Made by a program: the position numbers and the translations under genes | In this document: positions 1 to 15,044 of the stretch, piece after piece | Numbering within the stretch: the stretch's first letter is position 1 | Layout: every line of letters starts with the position of its first letter | The notes under the pieces: model-generated | The model's input: only the letters and a program-made list of their open reading frames with translations | What the model was told of the DNA's origin: nothing | The model's database searches: none | NCBI GenBank assembly: GCA_016649895.1 | Contig: JAENWR010000001.1 | Span: 1 to 64,000, forward strand | Direction: 5' to 3' | Source: Acidimicrobiia bacterium | Lineage (GTDB): Bacteria; Actinomycetota; Acidimicrobiia; Acidimicrobiales; SKKL01 | Length of the DNA stretch: 64,000 nt

Positions 1-54
1 CCCCAGCCCACGCCGGTGCCCCAGCCCACGCCGCCGCCCCAGCCCACGCCGCCG
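1..54 (+). repeat. In-frame 18-bp tandem repeats encoding PQPTPP
   Basis: Three consecutive 18-base units (1-18, 19-36, 37-54), each starting CCCCAGCCCACGCCG and differing only in the last codon (GTG, CCG, CCG). They encode a Pro-rich linker and probably continue left of the window. Such coding repeats can change copy number by slippage. Confidence 0.85.
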
Positions 55-1215
55 CCCCGGCCGGTTCCCGACCCCGTCGACGTCATCGGCCACATCGAGG
101 AGTCGCCCGGTCCGGTGACGACGATCGACACGCCGGTGCTCGGAGCCGAGGCGGTCACCTCGTTCATCGAGTCGTTGGCGAAGCTTCTGCGGTCATCTCC
201 GCTCGACGCGATCCCCCGATCGGTCCAACGGCCGCCGCTCGACCTGGCTGCCATCGGTCGCCAGGTCGTCGCGTCGACCCACCCACGGCGCATGGCGCTC
301 GATCGTGCCCAGTCGCGCATCCGCGTGGATGACGGCCCGCTCATCGACATCCCCACCGGCCCGGTCACGGTGGTTCGACGCGAGCCGATGGCCCCGATCA
401 TGGTCGGGCCCGTGCTCGAGCGCCCGCTGTACGAGGACCTGGCGCAGTTCGACGCCGATCGGTTCCTGCCGGGCGCGGGCCAGATCCCCGACGACGTCGT
501 CACGGTCCTCGAGACGAACCCCCGCTTCGTCGAGGCGTTCCTGGTCGGCGCCAACCACGAGATGAACCGCGAGCTGCTCTGGCGTCGATACCCCACCGAT
601 CGTCGTGGCACGCCTCTGCGCACGTTCTGGGACCACATCGACGGGGGCCCTGACGTAGGGCCGATCCACGGCTGGTCGGGCGCGAGCGGTCTCGGCCGGC
701 ACAGCGCCGGTGAGGCCGACGGCTCGATCGCCCTGCTGATCAGGGGTCAGCTCGTGCGCCGGTACCCCCACATCGTGGTCTACGCAGCGCCCGCCACCGC
801 CGGCCGACGCATCGACCCGACCGCCGCTCCGGTGATGCCGGTCTTCGCTGGTGTGCTCGAGCCCGACATCGTGTTCGTCGGGTTCCCCTTCGGTGCGAAC
901 GAGGCCGCTGACGGTGACGGCACGATGTTCATCATCCAGGAGCAACCCACCGAGCCTCGCTTCGGGCTCGACGTCGAGGGGGGTTCCCCCGCCAGCCCTC
1001 CAGGATCGTGGAGCGACCTCACCTGGGCGCACGTCGGCGTGGAGCCCGGGGGGCACCTCTCGATCGGTGCTCTCCCGGCCCAGCCCTCCCTCCCGCTCGC
1101 CAGCGACCGGCCGAACGTGAGGGCAACGTTCGGCCTCGACTCCGCCCACATGGCGGCCATCACGTTCCAACGACCGTTCCGCGTCGCGGTCCACAGCTCG
1201 GAGATCCTTCCCTAG
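1..1215 (+). CDS. Large uncharacterised protein, C-terminal part (cut by the window edge)
   Basis: Function unknown. The reading frame is already open at base 1 and no stop precedes the first in-window start (GTG at 16), so the true start probably lies to the left; 404 codons are visible. The visible N-terminus is a Pro-rich linker of PQPTPP repeats, followed by a globular part. About residues 175-206 from GTG 16 hold the block GANHEMNRELLWRRYPTD and then an RRGT...FWD segment. I recall similar blocks in uncharacterised multi-gene loci of other phyla but cannot verify it. No signal peptide, membrane helix or nucleotide-binding motif is visible. The next gene starts 2 nt after the stop, so the two are almost surely co-transcribed. 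Confidence 0.75.
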   Translation, partial: PQPTPVPQPTPPPQPTPPPRPVPDPVDVIGHIEESPGPVTTIDTPVLGAEAVTSFIESLAKLLRSSPLDAIPRSVQRPPLDLAAIGRQVVASTHPRRMALDRAQSRIRVDDGPLIDIPTGPVTVVRREPMAPIMVGPVLERPLYEDLAQFDADRFLPGAGQIPDDVVTVLETNPRFVEAFLVGANHEMNRELLWRRYPTDRRGTPLRTFWDHIDGGPDVGPIHGWSGASGLGRHSAGEADGSIALLIRGQLVRRYPHIVVYAAPATAGRRIDPTAAPVMPVFAGVLEPDIVFVGFPFGANEAADGDGTMFIIQEQPTEPRFGLDVEGGSPASPPGSWSDLTWAHVGVEPGGHLSIGALPAQPSLPLASDRPNVRATFGLDSAHMAAITFQRPFRVAVHSSEILP

Positions 1216-1217
1216 CC

Positions 1218-4200
1218 ATGCCCGACCCGAGGGGGCTCACCCCGACCCAGCGCCGGTCCGTCAGTGTGGCCGCCACCGATCTCGAGACGGCCCGCGTGGA
1301 GCGTGCTGTCGTGGAGGAGCAGCAGCAAGCGGCGCGCGCCGACGTGGCGCGGCACGAGCGGGAGCTCACCGAGCTCGTCGCCCGCCGGGCGACGGCCCGC
1401 CAGGTCGACGCGGCGAGGTCTCGGCTGACCACCGCCGCGACCGCCCAGCAGAGGGTCACCGCGACGGCGGCACGGATCGACCTCGAGATCGACGACATCC
1501 GTGACGTGCTCGACACCATCGTCGACCGCCTCGACGACCCCTTCGCCGCCCTCGACGGCCGACTTCCCGTCGCGCTCCTCCCGATCCGCATCGAGACTCG
1601 CTACGTCGGCACCCAGCTGCACGTGAGGATCTACCCCGACGTCCTCCACATCGATCAGCTCGAGCGCCTCCTCACCGCCGACGAGGAGGCCTGGGGCCAC
1701 AGCTACTGGCGGGAGCGGCGTCACCTCACGACGGCCGACGACCTCGCGGCGCTCTGGGATCGGCTCGTTGCCGGTCGACCCGCCCACCGCGCCGCCTGGA
1801 TCGCCGAGCAGACCACCCCGGTGAACGTCAGTCAGATCGCCCGGCAGGAGCCGCAGTTCCCGACGCTGGCGTTGCGCCCGGACGGACCGTCGCGCGCTCC
1901 GGTGGCTCAGCTGCTGCCCGGTCGTTGGCTGATCCTCGGCTATCGAGGCGGTACGGAGGTCCTGCGCAAGTGGAGCGGTTTCGTCGCCGACCCGCTTCCG
2001 GTCGGCATCGACCCGGGCGGGGCCGTGCCATCGACCCCTACGGGGCCACGACCCGATGTCCAAGACGCCCTCGCCATCGACGCCGCCGCTACATGGATCA
2101 CCGACTTCGAGGCTGCGGTCGCCGCCGGGATGGGGGTGAAGATCGGTGCCTCCGACGTGAAGGGCGGACTCGGGCCGCGGATCGACGAGCTCGTCGTGCT
2201 CGGCGTCGACCACCGGCGTCCACCCGCTGAGGCGGCCGCGCGGTTCGAGGAGGCCCTCCAGGCACATCGGTTCACCTCGGGGCTGGGCTTCGTCGGCGCG
2301 GGCACCGCCACGAACGCTGGCGACGGCGACGATGTCGCTGCCCGCCCCGCGGCGGCGACGCCCGGCTCATCGCCGACCGCCGCCACGCCCACGTCGGCCG
2401 GTGCACTCGCGACCAGGGCCTTCGGCCTGCCCGCCGATGGTGCCCTGGCCAGGGTCCACGCGGCGGCGGACGAGGTGAACCCGCTCACGGCCGACCTGCA
2501 CACGGCTGTGTGGGAACCGACGCTCGGCTACTTCCTCCGCCAGATCATGGACCCGATCGCCACCGATGCCCAGATCGACCAGGTGCGCGACCACTTCCGC
2601 CGCTTCGTCCGCCCCGGCGGGCCCCTCCCGCTGCTGCGGGTTGGCCGGCAGCCCTACGGGGTGCTACCCGTCGTGGCGCCCCAACGGTTCGCGGGCACCC
2701 CCACCGAGATGATGCTCGCCCGCGCCATGCGAGCACTGCGGCCGGTGTGGGCCCACGCCGCCCGCAGCGCCCGCCAACTCGGTGACAGCGGTGATCCGGC
2801 AGCCGATCTCGTGGTGCTCCTCGAGCGCACGAACCGCTCGGGGGCGTTCCGCATCCGCGAGGCGACCGGCCCTGGGGTGAAGGCGAACACGACCGGACTC
2901 GGACATCTCCACCTGTTCCAGCAGCTGGTGTCCCAGGTGATCCTGGCTGCGCTCGGAGTGAGAGGTCGGCCGGCCATCGTCGACATCACCTTGAGCGATG
3001 AGGAGGCCGTGCTGCCGGTGCCGCTCGTCACCGGCGGCTCGCTCAGCGACACCGAAGGCCTCGCTTCGGACTTCGTGCGGCGCATCGGCGGGCGGCTGTC
3101 GAGCGTGGGTGCCGTGGCGAACCTGGCGAAGGACGCCAGCGGAGCGTCGAGCTTGCTCGAGGCGCTCCTGGTGCACGCCGCCACCCTCGAACTGGTCAGG
3201 GGCACGACCGGGGTCGTCATCCGTCACCGCGCCATCGACATGCCGATCGGTCGGGCGATCCGCGACCGCGAGATCATCCTGGTCGAGGAGCCGTGGGTCG
3301 GCCCGACGGTCCATCGGGCCGCGGCCCGGCCGATGGTTCCCCGCGAACCCGACATCGACCTCGAGGTGGAGATCGACGGTGAGGGCACGGCCGGGGCCAT
3401 GCTGTCGCTCTCGCCACTCCAGATGGCCGCCGCACCGTTGGCCGGTGTCAGCGGACGGCTCAGCCTGGCCGATCACCTCACAGCACAGACGGTCGCGGAG
3501 CTGGGGCGCACGCAGGAGTCTCGGCAGCTCGGCGAGTTCCGCTCCAGCCTCCAGCGCCTCATCGGAGCTCCCACCGCCGAGTTGCACCGCACCACCGCCG
3601 ATGCGCTCGATGCGCTGAGCCATCGGTTCGATTCCTGGGCCACGTCGCTCGCGACCCGCCGTCTCGACACCCTCCGCCGCACCGCGCCAACCGGCGTGCA
3701 CATCGGTGCATTCGGCTGGGTGGAAGGCCTCGGCAAGCGGGCGAGCCCGGCGAGCCAGGGCTACGTCCACGGACCCTCCATCGCCCATGCCACCACAGCC
3801 GCCATCCTCCGCAGCGGCCACCTCGCCCGCAGCGAGGGGGCGGGCGATGCGCTCGCGATCGACCTCAGCTCGCGACGCACGCGCGATGCGTTGAAGCTGC
3901 TCGACGGCCTGAGGGCGGGCCAATCCCTCGGTGCTCTGCTCGGCTACCGCTTCGAGCGTCGATTGCGCGACCGCGGCGCGGAGTACGCCCGCTACATCCT
4001 GCCGACCCGACAACGGCACCCGCTGGCCGAGGGATCAAATGGCCGGGCGGGCACCGAGCCCGTCGAGGCGATCGCCGCCAGCAACGTCGTCGACGGGCTC
4101 CGCTTGGCCGAGCTCGATGCGGCGGCGCGCGCGGCCCTGCTCGACCAGGTGGGCGCCGCGCCGGGTCACCGCGCCGGCATCACCGCCGAGCTCGACGCGC

Positions 4201-5903
4201 TGGCCGACGCCGTCGATGCCATCGGCGACCTGATGGTCTCCGAGAGCGTGTTCCAGGCAGTGGTGGGCAACACCGATCGTGCGGCGGCCGCACTCGACGC
4301 CCTCGACCGCCAGACGGCGATCCCCGATGTCTCCGTGGCCCGCACCCCTCGCACCGGCACGGGCCTCAGCCATCGCTTGCTCGTCTCGCTCGACCGCGAC
4401 CGACCGCCCACCACGTGGAACGGACTTGTCGACCATCGCAGTCGGGCCGAGCCGCGGGTGAGCGCGTGGGTGGCCCGGCTCCTGGGCGACCCCGCTGCCT
4501 TCCGCCTGGCGGCCGACGTGGTCGATGCCGAGGGCGGCGTGCTGGAGACCGTCACCGTCACCCTCCGCGACCTGCGGATGTCGGCCCTGTCGGTCGTCCT
4601 CTCGGCTGCCCACGGCTCACAAGAGGTGAGCCAGCTCGAGGAGCGGTTGGCCCGCGTGCTGGCCGCAGCGGCGACCAACCCTGCCGCGGCCGGCCTCCGG
4701 GCCCACGAGGGCACCCCGATCGGCGCGCCGCCCGGGAGCGTCGGGCTCGCCGAGCTGATGGTGGCCTGCCGACGGATCGCCGACCTCCTGTCGAGCGCAC
4801 GGCCGGCCATCGGTCGCGACCTGGTGCCCGGCACCGACCCGGTCGTCGCCCCCGTCGACGCGGTGGAGCTGGGGCGTCGAGCCGACGCGTTGCGCGACGT
4901 CCTTGCGGCGGTGGCCGCCACCGATCCCGACAGCCCGGCGCTGACCGTCGCGGCCATCGACAAGGTGCTCCGGTCGGCCGCCGACCTGGGCATGCGCGGC
5001 GCACACCCGCAGTCGGCCGACCGCGACATCCTGCGGGTGCAGCTCGCCGAGGTCGTCGAGCAGGCGGCTGCCCACCTCGCGCAGCTCGACGCCATCGCGA
5101 CGCGTGCGGCTACAGCCCACGGTCCCACGCCGTCCGCCGAGGCGCAGGCAGCGTTGCACACCGAGCGGATCCAGCACGTGCTCGGACCGGACTTCCCGGT
5201 CGTGCCCCGCATGGTCATGCCGCCGGCCCTCGCCTCGATGCTCACGGCATCGGCCACCGATCCCGCGCTGCTGTCGGGTGAGCCATTGGCGCCCACCGAG
5301 TGGCTGATGCGCCACAGCATGGTCCGGCCATCGGTCGAGCGCCTGTGGGCGGTGCTCACCGACGCCGAACGCCGTGGCGCCGAGGTCGACGCCACCCAAC
5401 TGGCGGTGGCCCAGGTGCCGCACCGACCGGGGGAGCGTTGGATCGGACTCCCGGCCTCGTCACCTGCCACCCAGCCCATGGCGACCACATCGCTCCTCTT
5501 CCACCGCGCAGGCGACTCCGGCGACCCCACCACCACCATCGCCAACCCCATGGCGGCACTGCTGGTCGACCAGTGGCACGAGCGTGTACCGAACCCGGTC
5601 GAGACGACGGGGCTCGCGTTCAACTTCGACCGGCCCGGTGCCCGACGGCCCCAGTCGATCGTGCTGGCGGTGCCGCCCGAGGCGGATGCGGCGCACTGGA
5701 CGGTCGACGCCCTCGTCGACACCGTCCGTGAAGCGATCGACCTGACACGGATTCGCACCGTCGACCTCGACGACCTCCCCGGGATCGGTCGCATCCTTCC
5801 GGCGCTCTACTTCGCGTTCAACGTCGAGAACGAGGTGCCGTCGGTCAACGTGCGCCGGCTGGTCGAGACTTCGCTCGCCACCTGGATGAAGGAGATGCGG
5901 TAG
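1218..5903 (+). CDS. Giant uncharacterised protein (1561 aa), second gene of a three-gene module
   Basis: Function unknown. ATG 1218 is chosen because it lies 2 nt after the previous stop and begins MPDPRG; the in-frame sequence upstream only overlaps the first gene in another frame. Residues about 15-105 are Ala/Glu/Arg-rich and look like a long coiled coil. They lead into LLPIRIETR (about 120-128) and VRIYPDVLHID (about 136-146), which read as the opening of a conserved domain. A low-complexity Ala/Gly/Pro stretch lies near residues 365-395, and the rest is helical, Ala/Leu/Arg/Asp-rich sequence. No signal peptide, membrane helix, Walker motif or catalytic signature stands out. The next gene follows after 3 nt. 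A large structural or scaffold protein is possible, but that is inference from size and coiled coil only. Confidence 0.8.
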   Translation: MPDPRGLTPTQRRSVSVAATDLETARVERAVVEEQQQAARADVARHERELTELVARRATARQVDAARSRLTTAATAQQRVTATAARIDLEIDDIRDVLDTIVDRLDDPFAALDGRLPVALLPIRIETRYVGTQLHVRIYPDVLHIDQLERLLTADEEAWGHSYWRERRHLTTADDLAALWDRLVAGRPAHRAAWIAEQTTPVNVSQIARQEPQFPTLALRPDGPSRAPVAQLLPGRWLILGYRGGTEVLRKWSGFVADPLPVGIDPGGAVPSTPTGPRPDVQDALAIDAAATWITDFEAAVAAGMGVKIGASDVKGGLGPRIDELVVLGVDHRRPPAEAAARFEEALQAHRFTSGLGFVGAGTATNAGDGDDVAARPAAATPGSSPTAATPTSAGALATRAFGLPADGALARVHAAADEVNPLTADLHTAVWEPTLGYFLRQIMDPIATDAQIDQVRDHFRRFVRPGGPLPLLRVGRQPYGVLPVVAPQRFAGTPTEMMLARAMRALRPVWAHAARSARQLGDSGDPAADLVVLLERTNRSGAFRIREATGPGVKANTTGLGHLHLFQQLVSQVILAALGVRGRPAIVDITLSDEEAVLPVPLVTGGSLSDTEGLASDFVRRIGGRLSSVGAVANLAKDASGASSLLEALLVHAATLELVRGTTGVVIRHRAIDMPIGRAIRDREIILVEEPWVGPTVHRAAARPMVPREPDIDLEVEIDGEGTAGAMLSLSPLQMAAAPLAGVSGRLSLADHLTAQTVAELGRTQESRQLGEFRSSLQRLIGAPTAELHRTTADALDALSHRFDSWATSLATRRLDTLRRTAPTGVHIGAFGWVEGLGKRASPASQGYVHGPSIAHATTAAILRSGHLARSEGAGDALAIDLSSRRTRDALKLLDGLRAGQSLGALLGYRFERRLRDRGAEYARYILPTRQRHPLAEGSNGRAGTEPVEAIAASNVVDGLRLAELDAAARAALLDQVGAAPGHRAGITAELDALADAVDAIGDLMVSESVFQAVVGNTDRAAAALDALDRQTAIPDVSVARTPRTGTGLSHRLLVSLDRDRPPTTWNGLVDHRSRAEPRVSAWVARLLGDPAAFRLAADVVDAEGGVLETVTVTLRDLRMSALSVVLSAAHGSQEVSQLEERLARVLAAAATNPAAAGLRAHEGTPIGAPPGSVGLAELMVACRRIADLLSSARPAIGRDLVPGTDPVVAPVDAVELGRRADALRDVLAAVAATDPDSPALTVAAIDKVLRSAADLGMRGAHPQSADRDILRVQLAEVVEQAAAHLAQLDAIATRAATAHGPTPSAEAQAALHTERIQHVLGPDFPVVPRMVMPPALASMLTASATDPALLSGEPLAPTEWLMRHSMVRPSVERLWAVLTDAERRGAEVDATQLAVAQVPHRPGERWIGLPASSPATQPMATTSLLFHRAGDSGDPTTTIANPMAALLVDQWHERVPNPVETTGLAFNFDRPGARRPQSIVLAVPPEADAAHWTVDALVDTVREAIDLTRIRTVDLDDLPGIGRILPALYFAFNVENEVPSVNVRRLVETSLATWMKEMR

Positions 5904-5906
5904 CCC

Positions 5907-7649
5907 ATGGCCTCCATCACCAGCTGGACCCGGTTCGAGCCGGTCCCCCGATCGACCGACATGACGGGTGGACTCCGCGCCGAACTGGCCGACCCCCTGT
6001 GGCTCCTCGGTCGGCAGTGGCAGTTCGGCGAGCTCGCCGCAGAGGACGCAGGTTCACCGGTCGAGTCGATGCTCACCGTCGAGGTCGCGCCGCTGACCCG
6101 CCTGCACCCCGGACAGGTCGCCGGTGCCGCCGCGGCGCGGAGTGTCGACCTGGTTGACCCCACCGCGCCGCTCGAGTCGATGGTCGAGCGCCGGCCGGTG
6201 CAGGGAACGGTGCTCGATGCGCGCCTCGCGGTCGAGGCCGGGCAGCACTTCATGCGCCTGCTGGGGACGCACAGCGCACCGGCACAGCGGGCCCGCTACC
6301 TCGACGAGTACGCGCTCGTCGACCGGGGCGACCCCGACGAGCACGACCTGGTCACCCGCCGGTGGTGGTCGAGCGTGGCCGGCCGCGTGCCCGACGGCCG
6401 CCGGCTCCTCGACGACCTGGTGCGCCATCGGGGTGCAGCGCCGGCGCTGACGTCGCTGCCACCCGTTCCCGCGGTACCCGCCAACCAGCGGGCGCGGGTG
6501 CTGAAGGCCGCCAACGACCTCCTCCGGTGGTGGGAGTCGTTCGTCGATGAGCCGACCGCGGCCGCCGACAGCTGGGATCCTCGTCGGCTCGAGTACAGCT
6601 TCGCCACGCAGGCCACGCTCTCCGACGGCCACGTCGTGCTGCGGGCCGATGACTACGAGGGCGGCCGCCTCGACTGGTTCGAGTTCGAGGCCGACACCCG
6701 CATCGACCTCGGTCCGCCGAACGCCGACCCGTCGACGACGGCGCGGACCCTGGTGCGACGCACCATGCCGTCACCCGCGTTCTACGCCGGGATGCCCGCC
6801 GACCGCTTCTGGGAGTTCGAGGACATCAGCGTCCGCTTCGGGTCGTCGTCGGTGGGTCGCACCGATCTCGCTCACATGCTCCTCAACGAGTTCGCACTCG
6901 CCTACGGCAACGACTGGTTCGTGGTGCCGCTCACCCTCCCGACCGGGTCGGTGTGCGCCGTCCGGGACCTGCGAGTGATCGACAGCTTCGGGGTGTCCAC
7001 CACCGTCCGCCGGTCGGTCGGTGGAGGTTGGTCGATGTTCGACCTGTCGCTCCGAGCGGGTGCGGCGGGGCGGGCCGCTGGGCTCTTCTTCCTTCCGTCG
7101 ACCGTCGAGGTCGCCCAGGAGGGTGATCCGATCGAGGAGGTGGCCTGGTTCCGCGACGAGATGGCCAACGTCGTCTGGGCGGTGGAACGGTCGACCGAGT
7201 CGCCCGCTGGCGGGTCGGTCGATCGCTACGAGCATGCCCAGCAGCGGGCGGCGAGCGCCGCCTCCCAGGAGGTGGTGGGCGACGTGGGCGACGCCAGCCT
7301 GGCCTACCGGCTCAACTCGACCGTGCCCGAGAACTGGTTCCCGCTGGTGCCGGTGCGACCGCCGGGAGCGCCGGCGGGGGTGGTGCACCTCGAGTTGCGG
7401 CCGATTCGGCGGGTGGCTGCCGACGGCACCAGCGACGTGGCGTTGCCCCGCAGCCGGGTGCTGACCGCCACCGATCCCCTCGTCATCGAAGAGGAGGAGA
7501 TCGGGCGCGACGGCGTGAACGCCCAGTTGCGGTGGGAGCTCACCCGCGACCACGACGGGCGCTACCACCTGTGGCTCGCCCATCGCGTCACCACCGGTCG
7601 GGGCGAGGGATCGAGCGGGCTCGGGTTCGACCTCGCCCGCCCGGTCTGA
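5907..7649 (+). CDS. Uncharacterised protein (580 aa), third gene of the module
   Basis: Function unknown. ATG 5907 directly follows the preceding stop. The N-terminus carries the strongest signature of the locus, DPLWLLGRQWQFGE (about 29-42) followed by AEDAGSPV (about 45-52). I recall this W-rich block from uncharacterised proteins that sit beside equally large unknown proteins, but could not check it. A second conserved-looking patch, YRLNSTVPENWFPLVPV, lies near residue 465, and DRFWEFEDISVRFG near 300. No export signal or membrane segment is seen. The gene ends 8 nt from the convergent amidase gene, closing the operon. Confidence 0.8.
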   Translation: MASITSWTRFEPVPRSTDMTGGLRAELADPLWLLGRQWQFGELAAEDAGSPVESMLTVEVAPLTRLHPGQVAGAAAARSVDLVDPTAPLESMVERRPVQGTVLDARLAVEAGQHFMRLLGTHSAPAQRARYLDEYALVDRGDPDEHDLVTRRWWSSVAGRVPDGRRLLDDLVRHRGAAPALTSLPPVPAVPANQRARVLKAANDLLRWWESFVDEPTAAADSWDPRRLEYSFATQATLSDGHVVLRADDYEGGRLDWFEFEADTRIDLGPPNADPSTTARTLVRRTMPSPAFYAGMPADRFWEFEDISVRFGSSSVGRTDLAHMLLNEFALAYGNDWFVVPLTLPTGSVCAVRDLRVIDSFGVSTTVRRSVGGGWSMFDLSLRAGAAGRAAGLFFLPSTVEVAQEGDPIEEVAWFRDEMANVVWAVERSTESPAGGSVDRYEHAQQRAASAASQEVVGDVGDASLAYRLNSTVPENWFPLVPVRPPGAPAGVVHLELRPIRRVAADGTSDVALPRSRVLTATDPLVIEEEEIGRDGVNAQLRWELTRDHDGRYHLWLAHRVTTGRGEGSSGLGFDLARPV

Positions 7650-7657
7650 CGCCAGGT

Positions 7658-8506
7658 TCAGCTGGGTGGTGGCACCGTGGGCACAGAGGCGAGCTGGGTG
7701 CTCGTCCAGTTGAAGGGCAGCCAGTCGCCGTCCTTCAAACCCAGCTCACGGCCCTGGGGCGAATCCGCCGTGATGTAGGCGGCGGTGCCGTGGAAGCGCA
7801 TGATGTCGGCCTGGCCCGGCAACAGCTCCTGCTTGGTGAGGGTGTCGGTGACGTAGGTGGTGATGTCGCCGTCGTCGCCGGCGCTCCACACGATCCATCG
7901 GGGCATCTCGTCGTCGTCCTTGCTGCTGTCGGTCGGATGGGTGAGGTGGGCGCTGGGCGCCACCGGTGCACGCAGCCTCTCGGCCACGGAGGAGCGGAAC
8001 GGCTCGGGATCGACCGACACGAGGTCGATCTTGCGGCCCGGCGCCCACTCGAAGTGCTGGCACACCATCGAGTGGTCGAATCCGCTGCAACGGGCGAACG
8101 CCGCGTGGATGCGGTGGACGATCTCGAGCTTCTCGGCCGACGGGGGCGGCTCGGTGTCGAGGACGCCGGTGTGCTCGATCTCGAGGCCCCACACCGACGA
8201 GTTGCCCTTGAGGTTCCGCCAGCTGCCCTTGCCTGCGTGGTTCGCCCGGCCGGCGGCGATCAGGTAGACGCCACCATCGCGGGCGAGCGACACGTTGCAG
8301 AGCGGGCCAGCGAGGGGGTTCTTGCCGGCGCGGCCATTGATGAGGACCTTGAGCGACGGATGGTTGCCCGACGCCGGGCCAGCCGTGTGGTGGTTGACGC
8401 TGCCCCTGGGGTTGAAGGCAGTCGAGCCGCGTTCGCGCCAGCCGTTCACCTCGATGATGGACAGGCCCTGTTCCCGCAGGAAGTCGATGATCTCAGGGTG
8501 CCGCAC
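7658..8506 (-). CDS. N-acetylmuramoyl-L-alanine amidase (Amidase_2 fold)
   Basis: Predicted zinc amidase that cuts the muramic acid-L-Ala bond of peptidoglycan. GTG 8506 is chosen because GGAGGGAG lies just upstream and the protein then begins directly with the domain (VRHPEIIDFL); the frame further upstream is out-of-frame overlap with the next gene. Seen: VNHHTAGP (first zinc His), GLEIEHTG (middle acidic motif) and QHFEWAPGRKIDL (second His and Lys/Asp end motif), a typical Amidase_2/phage-endolysin set. About 90 C-terminal residues after an Asp/Ser-rich linker form a second, unrecognised domain beginning MPRWIVWSAGDDGD. No signal peptide is seen, so release would need lysis or another route. 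It overlaps the upstream 63-aa gene by 14 nt and converges on the large-protein module. Confidence 0.85.
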   Translation of the reverse strand: MRHPEIIDFLREQGLSIIEVNGWRERGSTAFNPRGSVNHHTAGPASGNHPSLKVLINGRAGKNPLAGPLCNVSLARDGGVYLIAAGRANHAGKGSWRNLKGNSSVWGLEIEHTGVLDTEPPPSAEKLEIVHRIHAAFARCSGFDHSMVCQHFEWAPGRKIDLVSVDPEPFRSSVAERLRAPVAPSAHLTHPTDSSKDDDEMPRWIVWSAGDDGDITTYVTDTLTKQELLPGQADIMRFHGTAAYITADSPQGRELGLKDGDWLPFNWTSTQLASVPTVPPPS

Positions 8507-8684
8507 CGAACAGCTCCCTCCACTGGTGGGCGGTGGACGGGTCCTGGTCGGGGAACAGCGGCAACAAGCTGACCACCTCGTCGTCGACGGGGTCGTCGCA
8601 CATGTCACAGTCGCAGCCATCGATGAGGTCGTCGTCGTCGACATCCATGCCGTCGAACGTGCCGGTCTGGTCGTGGTCGCTCAT
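8493..8684 (-). CDS. Small Asp/Cys-rich protein (63 aa)
   Basis: Unknown function. ATG 8684 has a good AAGGAGG Shine-Dalgarno, and the frame ends inside the amidase start region, a translational-coupling arrangement. Of 63 residues 17 are Asp, with runs DVDDDD and DGCDCDMCDDPVDDE. The three cysteines form C24-x-C26-x2-C29. The C-terminus SLLPLFPDQDPSTAHQW is more ordinary. A metal-binding or modified-peptide role is conceivable, but no precursor family is recognised. It is the promoter-proximal gene of the two-gene unit with the amidase. Confidence 0.7.
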   Translation of the reverse strand: MSDHDQTGTFDGMDVDDDDLIDGCDCDMCDDPVDDEVVSLLPLFPDQDPSTAHQWRELFGAAP

Positions 8685-8786
8685 GGTCCTCCTTCGGCTC
8701 GGGGGCAGCCACCCACATCGGGGCTCGGTACCGGTCCGTCTACCATCGCAGATCCGCGTGGGGGGCGCCGAGCATGCCGCCACCCG

Positions 8787-9803
8787 CTACCAGGCGGGAC
8801 GGGCCACGGGAACCGCACGACCCGCGGCGGCCGACTCGTAGGCCGCGGCGATGGCGGCCACGGCGGCCCGGCCGTCGGCGGCGTTCACTGTGGGCATCTC
8901 GTCGCGTGCGACGGCGGCCACGAACACCGCCTCGATGTTCGACTCAGCTCCACCGGTGGGGACCCGCTCCTGGCTGCCGTCCGGGCGGGTGAGGGTGAGG
9001 GGCGTCGATGCGTCGAGGTGGAGCGTTCCGTCGGTGCCTCGGATGACCACGTGGTTCTCGGGCCGGGCCCAGCTCGAGCGGAGGACCCCCGAGGCGCCGT
9101 TGGCGAACGTCAGTCGCACCTCGGCCTCCTCCTCGACCTCGCCGCGCTGGCCCCTGACGATGGCGCTCACGTCGGTGACCTCGCTGCCGAGCGCGCTCCG
9201 CAGCAGATCGATCTGGGCCACGCCGAGATCCATGAGCGGGCCGCCGCCGGAGCGGTGCTTCTCGAAGTACCAGGTGGCCGCAGGGTTGCGATGGTCGGGC
9301 CCGTCATGGCCGAACGCGATCTCTGCCGCGGTGAGGGTGCCGATGCGGCCGTCCCTCGCCGCGGCGGCCATGGCGGCGTACGGTCCGATGAACCGAACGC
9401 TGTGGGCCGGGATCACCATGACCCCCTTGCGGGCCGCGGCCTTCAACATGGCGTCGGCCTCGGCGACGGTGATCGCCATGGGGCTCTCGACGAGCACGTG
9501 CTTGCCGTGCTCCAGCGCGGCGAGCGCCATCTCGGCGTGCAGGTGGTTGGGCGCGCAGATGTCGACGGCATCGATGTGGGGCGATGCGACGACCTGGCGC
9601 CAGTCGTCGGTGGCCATCGCCTCGGCGTCGCCCGACGCGCTGGCGGCCGCCTCGGCGTCGGCCAGATGCAGGCTGGCGAAGCGGATCACCCGGGCTCCCG
9701 CTGCCGTGAGACCGGGCAGGTGGACCCGGCGTGCGATGTCGCCGCACCCGATCAGTCCGACGCGCACAGGCGACTCGCCGGCACCAGTTCCTTGGAACGC
9801 CAT
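8787..9803 (-). CDS. Gfo/Idh/MocA-family protein with altered catalytic residues
   Basis: Rossmann-fold protein of the NAD(P)-dependent sugar/inositol dehydrogenase family, 338 aa. ATG 9803 has GGAGGAG upstream. The nucleotide-binding motif GLIGCGDIARRVH is near the N-terminus. The usual EKP motif reads ESP (VESPMA), so the catalytic Lys is Ser. The usual DxGVH motif reads DLGVAQID, so the Asp is kept and the His is Ala. Both deviations are visible in the codons (AGC and GCC). Cofactor binding may persist while hydride-transfer chemistry is doubtful; it could act on a different substrate or as a non-catalytic protein. Divergent from the 2-hydroxyacid dehydrogenase gene. Confidence 0.85.
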   Translation of the reverse strand: MAFQGTGAGESPVRVGLIGCGDIARRVHLPGLTAAGARVIRFASLHLADAEAAASASGDAEAMATDDWRQVVASPHIDAVDICAPNHLHAEMALAALEHGKHVLVESPMAITVAEADAMLKAAARKGVMVIPAHSVRFIGPYAAMAAAARDGRIGTLTAAEIAFGHDGPDHRNPAATWYFEKHRSGGGPLMDLGVAQIDLLRSALGSEVTDVSAIVRGQRGEVEEEAEVRLTFANGASGVLRSSWARPENHVVIRGTDGTLHLDASTPLTLTRPDGSQERVPTGGAESNIEAVFVAAVARDEMPTVNAADGRAAVAAIAAAYESAAAGRAVPVARPAW

Positions 9804-9870
9804 GGGTACTCCTCCGATTCCAGGTCCGCCTCGTCGTAGCGTGGCACACGATGAGCGCGAAGCTGGCGTC

Positions 9871-10803
9871 ATGACGACGACACCGCCTCCTTCGCCGAAG
9901 ATCGCCGTGGAACCCAGGTCGGGACGCCACGAGTCGCTCATCGCCGCGGTGACCGCTGCCGGGGGAGTGGTGAGCCCGGTGGAGGAGGCCGATGCGCTGG
10001 TGTGGGCCGACGCGGCGCGCGCCGACCTGCTGCGCGGCGTGCTCGCTGCGGGACCCCAGGTGCGGTGGGTGCAGCTGCCCTTCGCGGGGATCGAGTCGTA
10101 CGTCCACCTGCTCGACGACGAGCACGAGTGGACGTGCGGCAAGGGCGTCTACGCACCGCCGGTGGCCGAGCACGCCCTGGCCATGACCCTGGCCGGCTTG
10201 AGGCACCTCGTGGGATACGGGCGGGTGCAGGCGTGGACCGCTCCCGTCGGTCGCAACCTCATCGGAGCCCAGGTCACGATCCTCGGCGGCGGCGAGATCA
10301 CGCGCGAGCTGATCTCGCTGCTGGCGCCGTTCGGCGCCCACGTCACCGTCGTCCGTCGACAGACCGGCCCGGTGGACGGTGCCGACGTCACCCTGACCAC
10401 CGACCGCCTCCACCAGGCACTACCGGGTGCCGACGTCGTGGTGCTCGCCCTCGCCCTCACCCCCGAGACCGTGGGCATCATCGGGAGCGCCGAGTTGGCC
10501 CTGATGGAGCCCCACGCCTGGCTGGTGAACGTGGCGCGCGGCCGACACGTCGACACCCACGCCCTCGTCGACGTACTGCGGGCCCACGAGATCGGCGGGG
10601 CCGCCCTCGACGTGACCGACCCCGAGCCGCTGCCGCCCGAACACCCGCTGTGGAGGCTGCCGAACTGCCTCATCACGCCGCACACCGCCAACACGCCGGA
10701 GATGGGGATCCCACTGCTCGCTGAGCGGGTGCGCGACAACGTGCGCCGCTTCGCGCTGGGCGAGACCCTGCTGGGTCGGGTCGATGTGGTCGGCGGCTAC
10801 TGA
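9871..10803 (+). CDS. D-isomer-specific 2-hydroxyacid dehydrogenase
   Basis: Predicted cytosolic NAD(P)H-dependent reductase of 2-oxoacids, 310 aa. The start could be ATG 9871 (chosen) or the in-frame GTG 9841. The NAD-binding loop is VTILGGGEI, with the last Gly of the classical GxGxxG replaced. The three active-site positions of the family are present: Arg in VNVARGRHVD, Glu in DVTDPEPLP and His in ITPHTANTP. The N-terminal substrate domain is short, as in the glyoxylate/hydroxypyruvate reductase branch. Divergent from the Gfo/Idh/MocA gene, sharing a 67-bp promoter gap. Confidence 0.88.
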   Translation: MTTTPPPSPKIAVEPRSGRHESLIAAVTAAGGVVSPVEEADALVWADAARADLLRGVLAAGPQVRWVQLPFAGIESYVHLLDDEHEWTCGKGVYAPPVAEHALAMTLAGLRHLVGYGRVQAWTAPVGRNLIGAQVTILGGGEITRELISLLAPFGAHVTVVRRQTGPVDGADVTLTTDRLHQALPGADVVVLALALTPETVGIIGSAELALMEPHAWLVNVARGRHVDTHALVDVLRAHEIGGAALDVTDPEPLPPEHPLWRLPNCLITPHTANTPEMGIPLLAERVRDNVRRFALGETLLGRVDVVGGY

Positions 10804-10908
10804 AGTGGGGGCACCGCCCGACTCGCCTCCACCAGCGCTGCCCGACCGGCCGGACCTCGTGGTTCCCGAGGCCGGCCGGGTCGGAGCGCTCCCCCCGGAT
10901 CTCTGCAA

Positions 10909-10928
10909 TGTAAACGCACGTGTCTACA
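10909..10928. promoter_or_regulatory. Candidate TetR-type operator
   Basis: Imperfect 20-bp dyad with arms TGTAaAC and GTcTACA around a GCACGT centre, 63 bp upstream of the TetR-family start at 10992. The position and AT-rich outer arms in very GC-rich DNA suggest autoregulation. No binding data. Confidence 0.45.
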
Positions 10929-10991
10929 CTTGGCAAGGAAAGATTTGGCAGACTGCGGCTCACACATCCGTGACCGGGGGAACAGCGGAGT

Positions 10992-11648
10992 ATGGGCGTC
11001 ACTGAGAGCACAACCGGCCGAACCGCTGTGACCAGCGGAAACGGCGCTACACGGCGCCTGCTGCCGCGCGATGAGCGCCGTGAGCAGATCCAGCGCGCCG
11101 CGGCATCGGCGTTCGCCCGAGAGGGCTTCGTCTCGACGTCGATCGACGTTGTCGCCGCCGAGGCGGGCATCACGCGCGCCATCGTCTACCGCCACTTCGA
11201 CTCCAAGGAGTCGCTGTACCGGGCCGTGCTCGAGGGCGTCAGCGCCCGACTGGGGGAGGAGTTCCAGCTGCGGCTGGCGTCGCGTCAGAGCGGCCTCACC
11301 ATCGCGACCCACCTCACCGTGGCGCGCGAGGACCCCGACGGCTACCGGTTGCTCTGGGAGCACGCCACCCGGGAGCCCCGGTTCGCCGACTACGCCGAAG
11401 ACTTCCGCGAGCGTTCGGTGCGCAGCACCGAACGGCTCTTCGAGGGGCGCATCGACGACCCAGCGAAGCAGCGGTGGGCGGCACGCCAGACTCTGTCGCA
11501 GCTCGTTTCGTCGGTGCTGCTGTGGCTCGACCACGGCAGCCCCGATGCCGACGAGGTGTTCCTCCAGTTCGCGAGCGCCGGGCTGTGGGCGAGCGTGGGG
11601 GCGTGGCGCGAGCACGAGCCCGAGGCGATCGCCTCCACCGATCGTTGA
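10992..11648 (+). CDS. TetR-family transcriptional regulator
   Basis: 218-aa regulator. A helix-turn-helix domain occupies about residues 30-80: RREQIQRAAASAFAREG, then AEAGITRAIVYRHFDSK, the typical TetR recognition-helix region. The C-terminal ligand domain is divergent and the ligand cannot be read. It sits downstream of a dyad at 10909-10928 and ends next to the convergent LLM-oxidoreductase gene. The target may be itself and/or neighbours. Confidence 0.88.
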   Translation: MGVTESTTGRTAVTSGNGATRRLLPRDERREQIQRAAASAFAREGFVSTSIDVVAAEAGITRAIVYRHFDSKESLYRAVLEGVSARLGEEFQLRLASRQSGLTIATHLTVAREDPDGYRLLWEHATREPRFADYAEDFRERSVRSTERLFEGRIDDPAKQRWAARQTLSQLVSSVLLWLDHGSPDADEVFLQFASAGLWASVGAWREHEPEAIASTDR

Positions 11649-11649
11649 T

Positions 11650-12546
11650 TCAGGTCTGCAGTGGCAGGACCCGCTCGGCGATGACGTCGAGCTCGGGGAT
11701 CCAGTCGGTCGGCTCGACCAGGGGCAGGAGCACGAACTTCGAGGCACCGATGTCGACGAACTGGCGGATGCGCTCGATGACTCCGTCGATGCCGACGGGC
11801 ACGACGTCGGTGGGATCGAGCTCGGGTCGTCGTCGCTGCACGAAGCGTGCGATGGCGTCGGGGACCTCGCCGTGGGCATACGCGATGAGCGCCCCGAAGT
11901 GCTCGGGATCGATGTGGCGGTCGTGGTGCTGGGCCACGTCGTTGATGGTGGCGATGCCGGCCTCCACCTCGGCGGGGGTGCAGAACGAGGGGAGCCAGCC
12001 GTCGCCCATGCGCCCCACCCTGCGCAGCTCTGAGGGTGCCACGCCGCCGAGCCAGACCTCGATCGGGTCCTGCGCCGGGCGGGGCAGCACCTGCACGCCG
12101 TGCATCTGGAACCGATCGCCATCGTGGTCGACGACCTCGCCGGTCCAGAGCCGGCGGATGAGGGCGAGCGACTCGCCGAACAGCGCTGCCCGCTCCTCGC
12201 GGCGCACCCCGAACGCCTGGTGCTCGACCGCATCGCGCGCTCCGAGGCCGAATGCCGGCAGCAGCCGTCCCCCGGAGAGCCGGTCGAGGCTCGCCAGCTG
12301 CTTCGCCACCACCGCAGGGTTGCGCCCCGGCAGCACCATCACGCTCATCCCCAGCTTCATGCGGCTGGTGCGAGCGGCGGCCATCGCCATCGCAACGACC
12401 GGGTCGGGCGCATCGCCGCTGATGCGGTCGGAGAACCACAACGAGTCGAAGCGACGCTGCTCGAGGGCATCGACCAGTGCGAAGAAGCGGTCGTGGTCGT
12501 GGGTGGGACTGCGGGTGCCGAGGCCATATCCGATGCGAACCTTCAT
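11650..12546 (-). CDS. LLM-class, probably F420-dependent oxidoreductase
   Basis: 298-aa TIM-barrel flavin/F420 oxidoreductase of the luciferase-like monooxygenase superfamily. ATG 12546 gives the usual beginning MKVRIGYGLG; an in-frame ATG at 12561 would add five residues. Family features are FDSLWFSDRI near the N-terminus, the substrate/cofactor loop GMSVMVLPGRNP, LSGGRLLPAFGLG, and the C-terminal IGASKFVLLPL. Short actinobacterial proteins with this layout usually use F420 rather than FMN; that is inference. The substrate is unknown. The gene converges on the TetR gene with one base between stops. Confidence 0.82.
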   Translation of the reverse strand: MKVRIGYGLGTRSPTHDHDRFFALVDALEQRRFDSLWFSDRISGDAPDPVVAMAMAAARTSRMKLGMSVMVLPGRNPAVVAKQLASLDRLSGGRLLPAFGLGARDAVEHQAFGVRREERAALFGESLALIRRLWTGEVVDHDGDRFQMHGVQVLPRPAQDPIEVWLGGVAPSELRRVGRMGDGWLPSFCTPAEVEAGIATINDVAQHHDRHIDPEHFGALIAYAHGEVPDAIARFVQRRRPELDPTDVVPVGIDGVIERIRQFVDIGASKFVLLPLVEPTDWIPELDVIAERVLPLQT

Positions 12547-12662
12547 GTCCCACTCTGACATGCCGACGGGACCCTTCGGGCCCGTCGGCAGCAGCCACGC
12601 CACCGAGTCCGTTCGCAGTTGGAGGTGAAGGTCGGCCCGAGTCGCGCCGATGACACTCGGAG

Positions 12663-15044
12663 ATGTCGACGAACCACATGATCGAGCACCGACGTTCGTT
12701 GGCCTGCAAGGCGGCTGTGGGTCTCATCGCGCTCGCCGTCGCTCATCTCGTGGTGGTGGTCGTGGCGGTCGCTCTCGTCGCTGCTCCGGTCATCGCGATG
12801 GTCGTCCTCGACCGCTTCGTCACCCCATCCCTGCTCGCCACCGTTGCCGGTCTCGTCCTCCTGTGGGCACTGGTGCCGCGACGCGAGCCGACCACGGCCC
12901 CGGGCATCCCCGTCGACCGCACCGAGCAGCCCGAGCTGTGGGACGTGGTCGAGACCATCGCGTCGGCGGCACAGCAGCGTCATCCGGCCGAGCTGCACCT
13001 GACCGACGATGTCAACGCCTACGTCGCCGACATCGGGGGGTTCTGGGGGTTCGGCGGTCGGCGGGTGATGGCTCTCGGCTTGCCGCTCATGCGAATGCTC
13101 GACGCCGAGGAGCTCGGCGCGGTGATCGCCCACGAGCTCGGGCACTGGCGCCGTGGCCCGGTGCGCTTCGGGCCCACCGCCCACCGCGTGCGGTCTGCTG
13201 CGGTTCGTGCGCTCGACACCCCCGATGGCTCCCGCCGATTCATCTCCGCCTGGTTGGCGGAGCGGTTCGTGCGCTTCACCGCCCCGGTCGCGCAGGCCCA
13301 GGAGTCGGCCGCCGATTCCGTGGCGGCATCGGCCACCAGCCCCCGTGCCCTGGCCGGGGCGATCTCGCGGCTCCCGTTCGGGACCGTGGCGTACGACGTG
13401 TACCTCCACACCGAGTACATCCCCATCGCCAAGTCCGGGATGGCGCCGCCGTTCCTCGACGGCTTCGCCGCCTTCCTCTCGAGCCGCATCGCGCGCGAGC
13501 ACCTCGCCGAGGCCGACGATGCGTCGTTCGGGGCCACCGCCCGCTCGACCCTCGACGCCCACGGCTCGGTGCCCGAGCGCGTCAACGCGGTGGGCATCCC
13601 CTACATGGGGTTGTCCGAGCGACCACCGCCCCAGGTCTCCGCGGCCGAGATGATCCGCGACCTCCCTGTCGTCGAGATGGCACTGGTGGCACGCCACCTG
13701 CCCGGGGTCGACGAACTGCAGCCGCTCGACTGGGCCGAGGTCGCGACGCTGGTGCTGATCCCCGGCTGGACCGCGGATCGCGAGCGTCTCGTCGGCGACC
13801 TGCCACCCGGCTTCCACCTCGGAGCGCTGCCGTGCGACCGCGACGGCCTGGCCGAGTTGGGCGAGGATGTCGGTGCTGCGCTGGGCAAGGACCTCGACCG
13901 CGGCGAGCGCGAGACCTATGGCCACCATGCGGCGCGGGCCATCATCGGTGAGATCGCGGTGGAGCGAGGCCTCGAGGTGCGGATGGTGCCGGGTGAGCCG
14001 GTGTGGTTCTGCCGGTCTCCCTATGAGTTCGGGCTCTTCTCCGCCTTCGACGACGTCGTCGCCGGCCGCAAGCAGTCGCGGATGTGGTTCGCCCTGCTGG
14101 AGGAGGCGGGTCTCACGGGTGCCGTCGGGCGCACCGCTGTCGCACCGCACGGCACCACCGTCGCTCCGCCCACGTCGCCGGTTCCGCCGGCAGGGCCCGC
14201 GCCCGATGGCCCGGCGCGTCCGACGCCCGCTCCGGTGTCGTCGCGTCCGCCCGGTTCGGAGTGGATGGCGCCGACGCCTGCCGACAGACCTGCGGCTGAC
14301 CCGGTGCCGGTGCCGGTGCCCGCCGCCCCCGCGCCGCTGCCCCGGCGGCTGTCCCCGGAACCGGCTCCGGCGCTGGTGGCCGCCACGTCGCGCGCCGCCG
14401 CTGCCCGGCAGCCCGTACCCGGTCGGTCCGAACCAGGTTTCGGCGACGCGCTCTTCGGCGTGTCCGATCACACGCGCCAGGTCTTCCAGGTGCCGATCGG
14501 CATGGGACGCCATCAGGAGCTGGTCCTCCACGCCGACTCGGTCACGTTCCGAGGGGTCAGCGTCTCGGCCGACGACATCGACCACGTGGCGTACTTCGCC
14601 ACCGAGGTCTTCGGCGTGAGCTTGTGGGCTGGCCCGGTCGAGCTCCAAGCGAAGATGATGGGCAACGGTCGCAACCGCGAGCAGTCCGAGCCGGCGTGGA
14701 CTGCGCTCGTCGAGTGGGTGACGGCCCGGGTCGAGCAGCGCCTCGTCGAGCGCCACCTCGCCACCCTCGTCGAGAAGGGGCGGGTCACCGTCGCCGAGGA
14801 GGTCCTCACCACCAACGGCATCGTCGTACTCGGTCGGGTGGTCCCGTGGGAGGTCCTCGCCGACCTCGATGTGACCGGCGACGAGGTCGTCATCCGCCAG
14901 CGGATCCACGGCGCCGACGGATCGACCCCACTCGAGTCGCTGCCCGCCCGTCGACCCGACGCGGTGCTGCTCCCCGCGCTCTGTCGGGCCGCGGCTGGCG
15001 CTGCCCGCACCCGCACCCACACCCACACCGACCTCCCGGGTTAG
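12663..15044 (+). CDS. Membrane-anchored M48-family zinc peptidase with extra C-terminal domain
   Basis: 793 aa. Two hydrophobic helices (about residues 16-48 and 56-72) anchor the N-terminus. The zinc-peptidase motif is HELGH at 157-161, with the third ligand in ESAAD (E214...D218), as in M48/HtpX-like enzymes. After the catalytic part comes a long Pro/Ala-rich linker (about 490-590). A C-terminal region with FQVPIGMGRHQELVL and VTFRGVSVSADDIDHV resembles a PH-like beta domain, ending in a short RTRTHTHT tail. HtpX relatives are about 300 aa, so more than half of this protein is additional. Likely role: membrane-protein quality control or processing (inference). The ATG at 12678 is a possible alternative start. 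Confidence 0.82.
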   Translation: MSTNHMIEHRRSLACKAAVGLIALAVAHLVVVVVAVALVAAPVIAMVVLDRFVTPSLLATVAGLVLLWALVPRREPTTAPGIPVDRTEQPELWDVVETIASAAQQRHPAELHLTDDVNAYVADIGGFWGFGGRRVMALGLPLMRMLDAEELGAVIAHELGHWRRGPVRFGPTAHRVRSAAVRALDTPDGSRRFISAWLAERFVRFTAPVAQAQESAADSVAASATSPRALAGAISRLPFGTVAYDVYLHTEYIPIAKSGMAPPFLDGFAAFLSSRIAREHLAEADDASFGATARSTLDAHGSVPERVNAVGIPYMGLSERPPPQVSAAEMIRDLPVVEMALVARHLPGVDELQPLDWAEVATLVLIPGWTADRERLVGDLPPGFHLGALPCDRDGLAELGEDVGAALGKDLDRGERETYGHHAARAIIGEIAVERGLEVRMVPGEPVWFCRSPYEFGLFSAFDDVVAGRKQSRMWFALLEEAGLTGAVGRTAVAPHGTTVAPPTSPVPPAGPAPDGPARPTPAPVSSRPPGSEWMAPTPADRPAADPVPVPVPAAPAPLPRRLSPEPAPALVAATSRAAAARQPVPGRSEPGFGDALFGVSDHTRQVFQVPIGMGRHQELVLHADSVTFRGVSVSADDIDHVAYFATEVFGVSLWAGPVELQAKMMGNGRNREQSEPAWTALVEWVTARVEQRLVERHLATLVEKGRVTVAEEVLTTNGIVVLGRVVPWEVLADLDVTGDEVVIRQRIHGADGSTPLESLPARRPDAVLLPALCRAAAGAARTRTHTHTDLPG

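What the first reader, a model, noticed from the sequence alone, without database searches (positions are those of the whole stretch)
1..7649. Three-gene module of giant proteins with no assignable function
Three tightly packed genes (gaps of 2 and 3 nt) encode one cut protein and proteins of 1561 and 580 aa. They hold distinctive W/R-rich blocks (NHEMNRELLWRRYPTD, LLPIRIETR, DPLWLLGRQWQFGE) but no enzyme motif. Gene size, a coiled coil and conserved-looking blocks suggest a structural complex, perhaps a secreted or particle-like assembly. The nearby amidase and acidic peptide may belong to it.
Basis: partly seen in the sequence, partly recalled or inferred. Interest (0 to 1): 0.68.

Follow-up and report, generated by a model that had tools for sequence, protein, structure and literature searches.

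The report
Mobile giant-protein cassette with swappable hydrolase
The three odd giant genes are the last part of a five-gene cassette, cut in two by a contig end, that travels as one unit between distant bacteria and salt-loving archaea, often led by an interchangeable lipid-, protein- or sugar-cutting enzyme; what it does is unknown, and four of its five proteins belong to no family of known function.

Summary
In detail: three co-directional genes, gaps of 2 and 3 nt, the first cut by the contig start. The module is larger than the window shows. Another contig of the same genome (C122) ends in the same gene: a 19-nt sequence occurs only at the end of C122 and the start of this contig, and the reading frame continues across it. 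The full cassette is g1 (PhoD-like metallophosphodiesterase), g2 (DUF6603), g3, g4, g5. Relatives of g5 occur in many bacterial phyla and Halobacteria. g4 lies upstream in 75/75 loci and g3 in 60/60; DUF6603 precedes them where checked. Closest relatives mostly agree for g3, g4 and g5, even across phyla, so the cassette moves as a unit. g3-g5 have no significant Pfam, NCBIfam or PDB relative. g5 folds confidently (pTM 0.80) without a PDB match; its most conserved stretch is disordered alone, suggesting a partner interface. g2 is predicted as a long amphipathic beta-sheet. The leading gene is swapped: PhoD, phospholipase D, subtilase, M64-like or glycosidase-like. Best reading: a multi-subunit assembly, made without recognisable signal peptides, that carries hydrolases to membranes or envelopes. 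The nearby amidase is not part of it. Function is inferred, not shown.

The parts
1..1215 (+). g3, 3' part (404 codons). Its 5' part (707 codons) lies on contig C122:12578-14698 of the same genome. The contig break falls in a PQPTP-repeat linker.
   Evidence: C-terminal family alignment
1..19 (+). 19-nt sequence shared only with the last 19 bases of contig C122; marks the assembly break inside g3
553..600 (+). Conserved g3 block NHEMNRELLWRRYPTD
1218..5903 (+). g4, 1561 aa, no known family
1245..1538 (+). Pro/Gly-free N-terminal stretch of g4 (residues 10-107), possible coiled coil
1575..1601 (+). Conserved g4 block LLPIRIETR
5907..7649 (+). g5, 580 aa, no known family; confident predicted fold without a PDB match
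5991..6032 (+). DPLWLLGRQWQFGE, within the g5 stretch of residues 24-47, which is highly conserved yet predicted disordered in the monomer; candidate docking segment

Best explanation
A single heteromeric protein machine, encoded by a mobile cassette g1-g2-g3-g4-g5. Shown by sequence: one co-directional cassette with conserved order, inherited and transferred as a unit, often led by an interchangeable hydrolase gene whose end can overlap the start of g2 by 4 nt. Inferred: g3, g4 and g5 form a giant scaffold, in which the conserved but alone-disordered N-terminal stretch of g5 docks onto a partner. g2 (DUF6603), a long run of amphipathic antiparallel beta-strands, binds lipid or inserts in membrane as a belt, groove or barrel. 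The hydrolase (PhoD- or HKD-type phosphodiesterase in most identified cases, peptidase or glycosidase-like in others) is thereby held at a membrane or envelope surface and cuts it. The proteins lack recognisable signal peptides, so the assembly would leave the producer by lysis or a non-classical route and act on other cells or on environmental membranes. Some lineages add binding-type domains (lamin-tail, Kelch, FG-GAP, TIG, or a separate H-type-lectin fibre gene).
For: Linkage: g4 upstream of g5 in 75/75 loci, g3 in 60/60, DUF6603 in 28/28 genomes tested. Joint transfer: mostly concordant nearest relatives of g3, g4, g5, including cross-phylum pairs. Swapped hydrolase: PhoD-like in 16 of 34 loci; phospholipase D, subtilase, M64-like or glycosidase-like proteins in others, several with 4-nt overlaps with g2. 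Own g1 keeps PhoD motifs GSC, GDQIYADD, DDHEVTDD, GDVHY. g2 strands alternate strongly in hydropathy (3.19 against 1.51 +/- 0.20 shuffled), with ApoB100 and large barrels as the top structural hits. g5 residues 24-47: conservation 0.78 against 0.47 elsewhere, pLDDT about 40. Low cysteine (0.19-0.38% against 1.2%). Binding-type accessory domains.
Against: No physical evidence of a complex, of lipid binding or of release. Amphipathic strands also occur in ordinary beta-sheet proteins, and the g2 structural matches have TM-scores of at most 0.20. About a third of the upstream loci have an unknown protein or nothing recognisable in the first position. No secretion machinery or signal peptide was found. 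No immunity-like partner gene is conserved.
Confidence: 0.4

Rival explanations
1. An intracellular lipid- or hydrophobe-storing particle (a prokaryotic lipoprotein analogue): DUF6603 wraps a lipid core, g3-g5 form a coat, and PhoD or phospholipase D remodels the lipids.
For: No signal peptides; DUF6603 amphipathic with ApoB100 as the top hit; the leading enzyme is often a phosphodiesterase, one branch of which is a phospholipase D.
Against: Subtilase, M64-like and glycosidase-like leading genes do not fit lipid handling; FG-GAP, Kelch, lectin and TIG domains are unusual for a cytosolic coat.
Confidence: 0.2
2. A cell-surface or matrix adhesion complex (biofilm or attachment), with the enzyme serving nutrient release at the surface.
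For: Accessory binding domains: lamin-tail, Kelch, FG-GAP, TIG, H-lectin fibre; low cysteine; environmental carriers.
Against: No signal peptide, anchor or sorting motif seen; most g5 proteins carry no added domain.
Confidence: 0.2
3. [quoted passage not shown]
For: The eCIS cap marker Pvc16_N is in 6/11 DUF6603-bearing Actinomycetota against 21/335 others (p = 4.6e-5) and in 16/28 cassette genomes from many phyla. The window's own genome has sheath and Pvc16_N genes on contig C167.
Against: A control family, gas vesicle GvpA, is also enriched with Pvc16_N (6/27 against 21/319, p = 0.012), and DUF6603 with GvpA (p = 0.007), so lifestyle or genome size explains part; DUF6603 and GvpA carriers differ only at p = 0.07. 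In the own genome the loci are on different contigs and the sheath region holds no cassette relatives. 12 of 28 cassette genomes lack the marker.
Confidence: 0.12

Closest known systems
DUF6603 (Pfam PF20248), g2
   Same: Own g2 matches over the whole family profile, E = 2e-117
   Different: The family has no known function; the link to g3-g5 and to a swapped hydrolase is not in any paper of the library searched by family name
PhoD-family phosphodiesterases, g1 (Bacillus subtilis PhoD, Streptomyces chromofuscus phospholipase D; PMC4223295)
   Same: Weak Pfam match (E = 4e-5, 23.3 bits, below the 27-bit cut-off), an N-terminal DUF7800 match (also below cut-off), and active-site motifs including a Cys in GSC
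   Different: 1153 aa, no export-signal-like start found, and coupled to DUF6603; PhoD enzymes are described as extra-cytoplasmic
Extracellular contractile injection systems (eCIS)
   Same: Environmental carriers, spread between bacteria and archaea, statistical co-occurrence
   Different: No sheath, tube, baseplate or cap gene among the cassette proteins; not phage-like by PHROGs
Lipid-binding beta proteins (ApoB100) and large outer-membrane barrels (SlpA, LptD, MtrB)
   Same: Top structural hits of the g2 model; long amphipathic antiparallel strands in sequence order
   Different: TM-scores of at most 0.20 among the best hits, no sequence similarity by profile, and present in archaea and Gram-positive bacteria

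Membership tests
DUF6603 (PF20248) | Match above the curated cut-off over the domain | tested here: met
   g2 on C122: 393.3 bits against a cut-off of 27, profile positions 6-501 of 502
PhoD family | Pfam PhoD score above the gathering cut-off | tested here: not met
   23.3 bits against 27; so g1 is called PhoD-like only
PhoD family | Metal-binding active-site motifs | tested here: met
   GSC 162, GDQIYADD 207, DDHEVTDD 395, GDVHY 865, read against the ligands described in PMC4223295; motif match by eye
PhoD family | Ca2+/Fe3+-dependent phosphodiesterase activity | not testable with these tools
   Needs an enzyme assay
Extracellular contractile injection system | Sheath, tube, baseplate or cap genes in the locus | tested here: not met
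   No such family among g1-g5; sheath and cap genes of this genome lie on other contigs
Gas vesicle | GvpA in the genome | tested here: not met
   No GvpA match in the own genome
Tc toxin complexes | Pfam-recognisable Tc subunit or Rhs domains | tested here: not met
   No such family in g1-g5; no Tc sequence was fetched
Known anti-phage defence systems | Match to a PADLOC model | tested here: not met
   No match for any of g1-g5
Prophage or tail module | Relatives in phages or PHROGs | tested here: not met
   No PHROG match for 61 g5 relatives, none in IMG/VR; one unverified 'Bacteriophage sp.' scaffold matched
ApoB100-like or bridge-like lipid binding (works-like claim) | Binds or carries lipid | not testable with these tools
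   Only strand amphipathicity and weak structural hits

The most novel reading that the evidence does not exclude
A previously undescribed class of macromolecular machine, not derived from phage, spread by horizontal transfer across bacteria and archaea, in which a fixed four-protein scaffold (amphipathic beta protein DUF6603 plus three new families, g5 with a new fold) carries interchangeable hydrolases to membranes or envelopes of other cells.
Probability: 0.35. Interest if true: 0.88.

Novelty: categorically new. Interest (0 to 1): 0.66.

Why it matters
A cassette of about 17 kb in this genome, moved intact between phyla and present in both bacteria and haloarchaea, probably earns its cost, yet no family library searched names three of its four core proteins and the fourth is a DUF. 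Knowing the full gene set, the order and the swapped enzyme makes its function testable: the enzyme hints at which bond is cut and the scaffold gives handles for purification. If it carries hydrolases to other cells or membranes, it would be a new kind of protein assembly beside phage-derived injection systems.

Tried and rejected
Chance ORFs: rejected, invariant residues across phyla. Known enzyme or transporter for g3-g5: no significant hit in Pfam, NCBIfam, PHROGs, PADLOC or PDB profiles; the best g5 PDB hit, 3kdq (an uncharacterised protein), has E = 0.028 and was not pursued. Phage origin: IMG/VR scan empty; the one 'Bacteriophage sp.' hit (MT835531, unverified faecal scaffold) looks bacterial by eye. 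Amidase 7658-8644 as a member: no relative in the related loci. Conserved downstream gene: none found; the recurrent clusters looked like antisense artefacts of my longest-ORF gene caller. That caller also mislabelled some genes, so linkage was counted by six-frame profile search. eCIS link: enriched but partly confounded in the GvpA control. Caspase-type genes near two cassettes (L073 directly downstream, L116 two genes upstream of g2) were too few to build on. Viral fold search of g5: nothing. An attempt to count g5 C-terminal extensions by a motif failed.

Full report
Observation. The three genes are as described. The window begins at base 1 of contig C34 of a 171-contig genome, which is why the first gene is cut.

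The missing half. A search of the own genome for DUF6603 (PF20248), suggested by the neighbours in plasmid relatives, found one copy on contig C122, 14,699 bases long. C122 carries g1 (5662-9123), g2 (9120-12581) and the first 707 codons of g3 (12578-14698), in one direction, with short overlaps (starts chosen by eye). The last 19 bases of C122 equal the first 19 of C34; this 19-mer occurs nowhere else in the held assembly, and the reading frame continues within a PQPTP repeat. The join is strongly suggested, not proven by reads. The operon is thus g1-g2-g3-g4-g5, of which the window shows the end of g3 and all of g4 and g5.

Relatives. A pattern scan of 84,980 species genomes returned 242 relatives of g5, a lower bound; the best 80 were kept. 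They include Acidobacteria, Verrucomicrobia, Nitrospira, Proteobacteria, Myxobacteria (Polyangium), Actinobacteria, Bacteroidota, Chloroflexi and Halobacteria, by record title. Plasmid relatives occur in Streptomyces, Gemmatirosa, Rhizobium, Paraburkholderia, Nocardia and haloarchaea. None was found in IMG/VR. Over the 80 loci, g4 lies upstream on the same strand in 75 of 75 with enough sequence, g3 in 60 of 60, and DUF6603 inside 41 of 57 flanks. Of the 16 others, five were checked by coordinates and have DUF6603 directly beyond the flank (L037, L041, L046, L074, L088); the other eleven were not individually checked. All 28 genomes tested have DUF6603 somewhere. In 346 genomes of the same phylum, DUF6603 (11) and g5 (9) share 7, hypergeometric p = 1e-10.

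Unit of transfer. In 49 loci the nearest relative is mostly the same for g3, g4 and g5, including cross-phylum pairs: Polyangium and Arthrobacter (66-67% in all three), a Rhodobacteraceae bacterium and Microbacterium, a Rhizobium plasmid and an actinomycete. The window's own cassette is closest, in this set, to that of a gammaproteobacterium (38-44%). Distances of g4 and g5 correlate well (Spearman 0.84), g3 less so (0.43-0.44).

The leading gene. Upstream of g2 lies a PhoD-like gene in 16 of 34 loci. Others have HKD phospholipase D (L100 and L102 by Pfam; L125 by similarity), subtilase (L107), Rv2525c glycoside-hydrolase-like (L112), or M64-like proteins (L101, three related proteins in a row, two of them scanned). 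PhoD-like, subtilase and glycosidase-like genes in several loci overlap g2 by 4 nt, as expected of translational coupling, so these genes belong to the operon. Some loci have unknown proteins or nothing recognisable there. The own g1 keeps PhoD-like metal motifs but scores below the Pfam cut-off. The PhoD family includes a secreted phospholipase D (PMC4223295), so PhoD-type and HKD-type enzymes may share a reaction here; that is inference.

Protein features. AlphaFold of g5 with 61 sequences gave pLDDT 82 and pTM 0.80; no PDB or viral fold match passed E <= 0.001. Residues 24-47, with DPLWLLGRQWQFGE, are among the most conserved of the protein (0.78 against 0.47 for confident regions) but have pLDDT about 40: probably an interface ordered only with a partner, though lack of alignment depth cannot be excluded. 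The DUF6603 model (a Nitrospira relative, 946 aa fragment, pTM 0.56) is a row of long antiparallel strands with strong alternation of hydropathy; its best structural matches are ApoB100 and big outer-membrane barrels, at low TM. g3 C-part, g4 and g5 have no significant PDB relatives by profile. The core proteins are poor in cysteine, 0.19-0.38% against 1.2% for neighbouring mechanical ORFs, and show no signal-peptide-like starts (crude). Accessory domains are of types common outside cells: lamin-tail (Halobacteria), Kelch (Polyangium), FG-GAP (Streptomyces), TIG (a Solirubrobacterales bacterium), and an H-lectin fibre gene directly downstream in one Nitrospira.

Mechanism. The best-supported reading is a heteromeric assembly carrying an exchangeable hydrolase to membranes or envelopes. 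Shown: linkage, order, joint transfer, exchange of the leading hydrolase, and a conserved segment predicted disordered alone. Inferred: complex formation, lipid contact by g2, release from the cell, and target. Rivals are an intracellular lipid particle, a surface adhesion complex, and an eCIS partner. The eCIS cap marker is enriched in carriers (6/11 against 21/335, p = 4.6e-5; 16/28 in the wider set), but a gas-vesicle control also associates with it (6/27 against 21/319), so lifestyle or genome size accounts for part.

Novelty. No paper in the library names DUF6603 or PF20248, and no family library searched describes g3-g5. By the tests run here it belongs to no known system. Work in subscription journals or preprints could not be checked, so an earlier description under another name is possible.

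Noticed in passing
G000 contig C167:58692-64166 and C80:4441-4942: The same genome carries eCIS-like genes (two sheath matches and a Pvc16_N cap match) on C167, and a second Pvc16_N match split over two frames on C80.
   Followed up: partly
L102 (Candidatus Nitrospira defluvii): Two DUF6603 genes in tandem with an 857-aa gene between them, and in the same genome a 269-aa gene inserted between g3 and g4.
   Followed up: no
L073:1944-3752 and L116:6609-9860: Caspase-domain (Peptidase_C14) proteins beside two cassettes: directly downstream of g5 (gap 20 nt) in a betaproteobacterium, and with NB-ARC and TPR repeats two genes upstream of g2 in Rufibacter.
   Followed up: no
L050:11786-13018 and L053:11947-13281: Related genes directly downstream of g5 in two Nitrospira; one has an H-type lectin domain and resembles a phage tail fibre, a possible receptor-binding addition.
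   Followed up: partly
L012 (MT835531.1): An unverified 'Bacteriophage sp.' faecal scaffold carries g4 and g5 beside bacterial-looking genes; its viral label is doubtful.
   Followed up: partly
window 7658-8644, - strand: Amidase_2 (N-acetylmuramoyl-L-alanine amidase) converging on g5; no relative in the other cassette loci.
   Followed up: yes
L015:1607-3462, - strand: A nucleotidyltransferase-like gene and an HTH gene upstream of g1 look like an AbiEii-type pair (by eye); the Salinigranum plasmid has an annotated AbiEii/AbiEi pair near its cassette.
   Followed up: no
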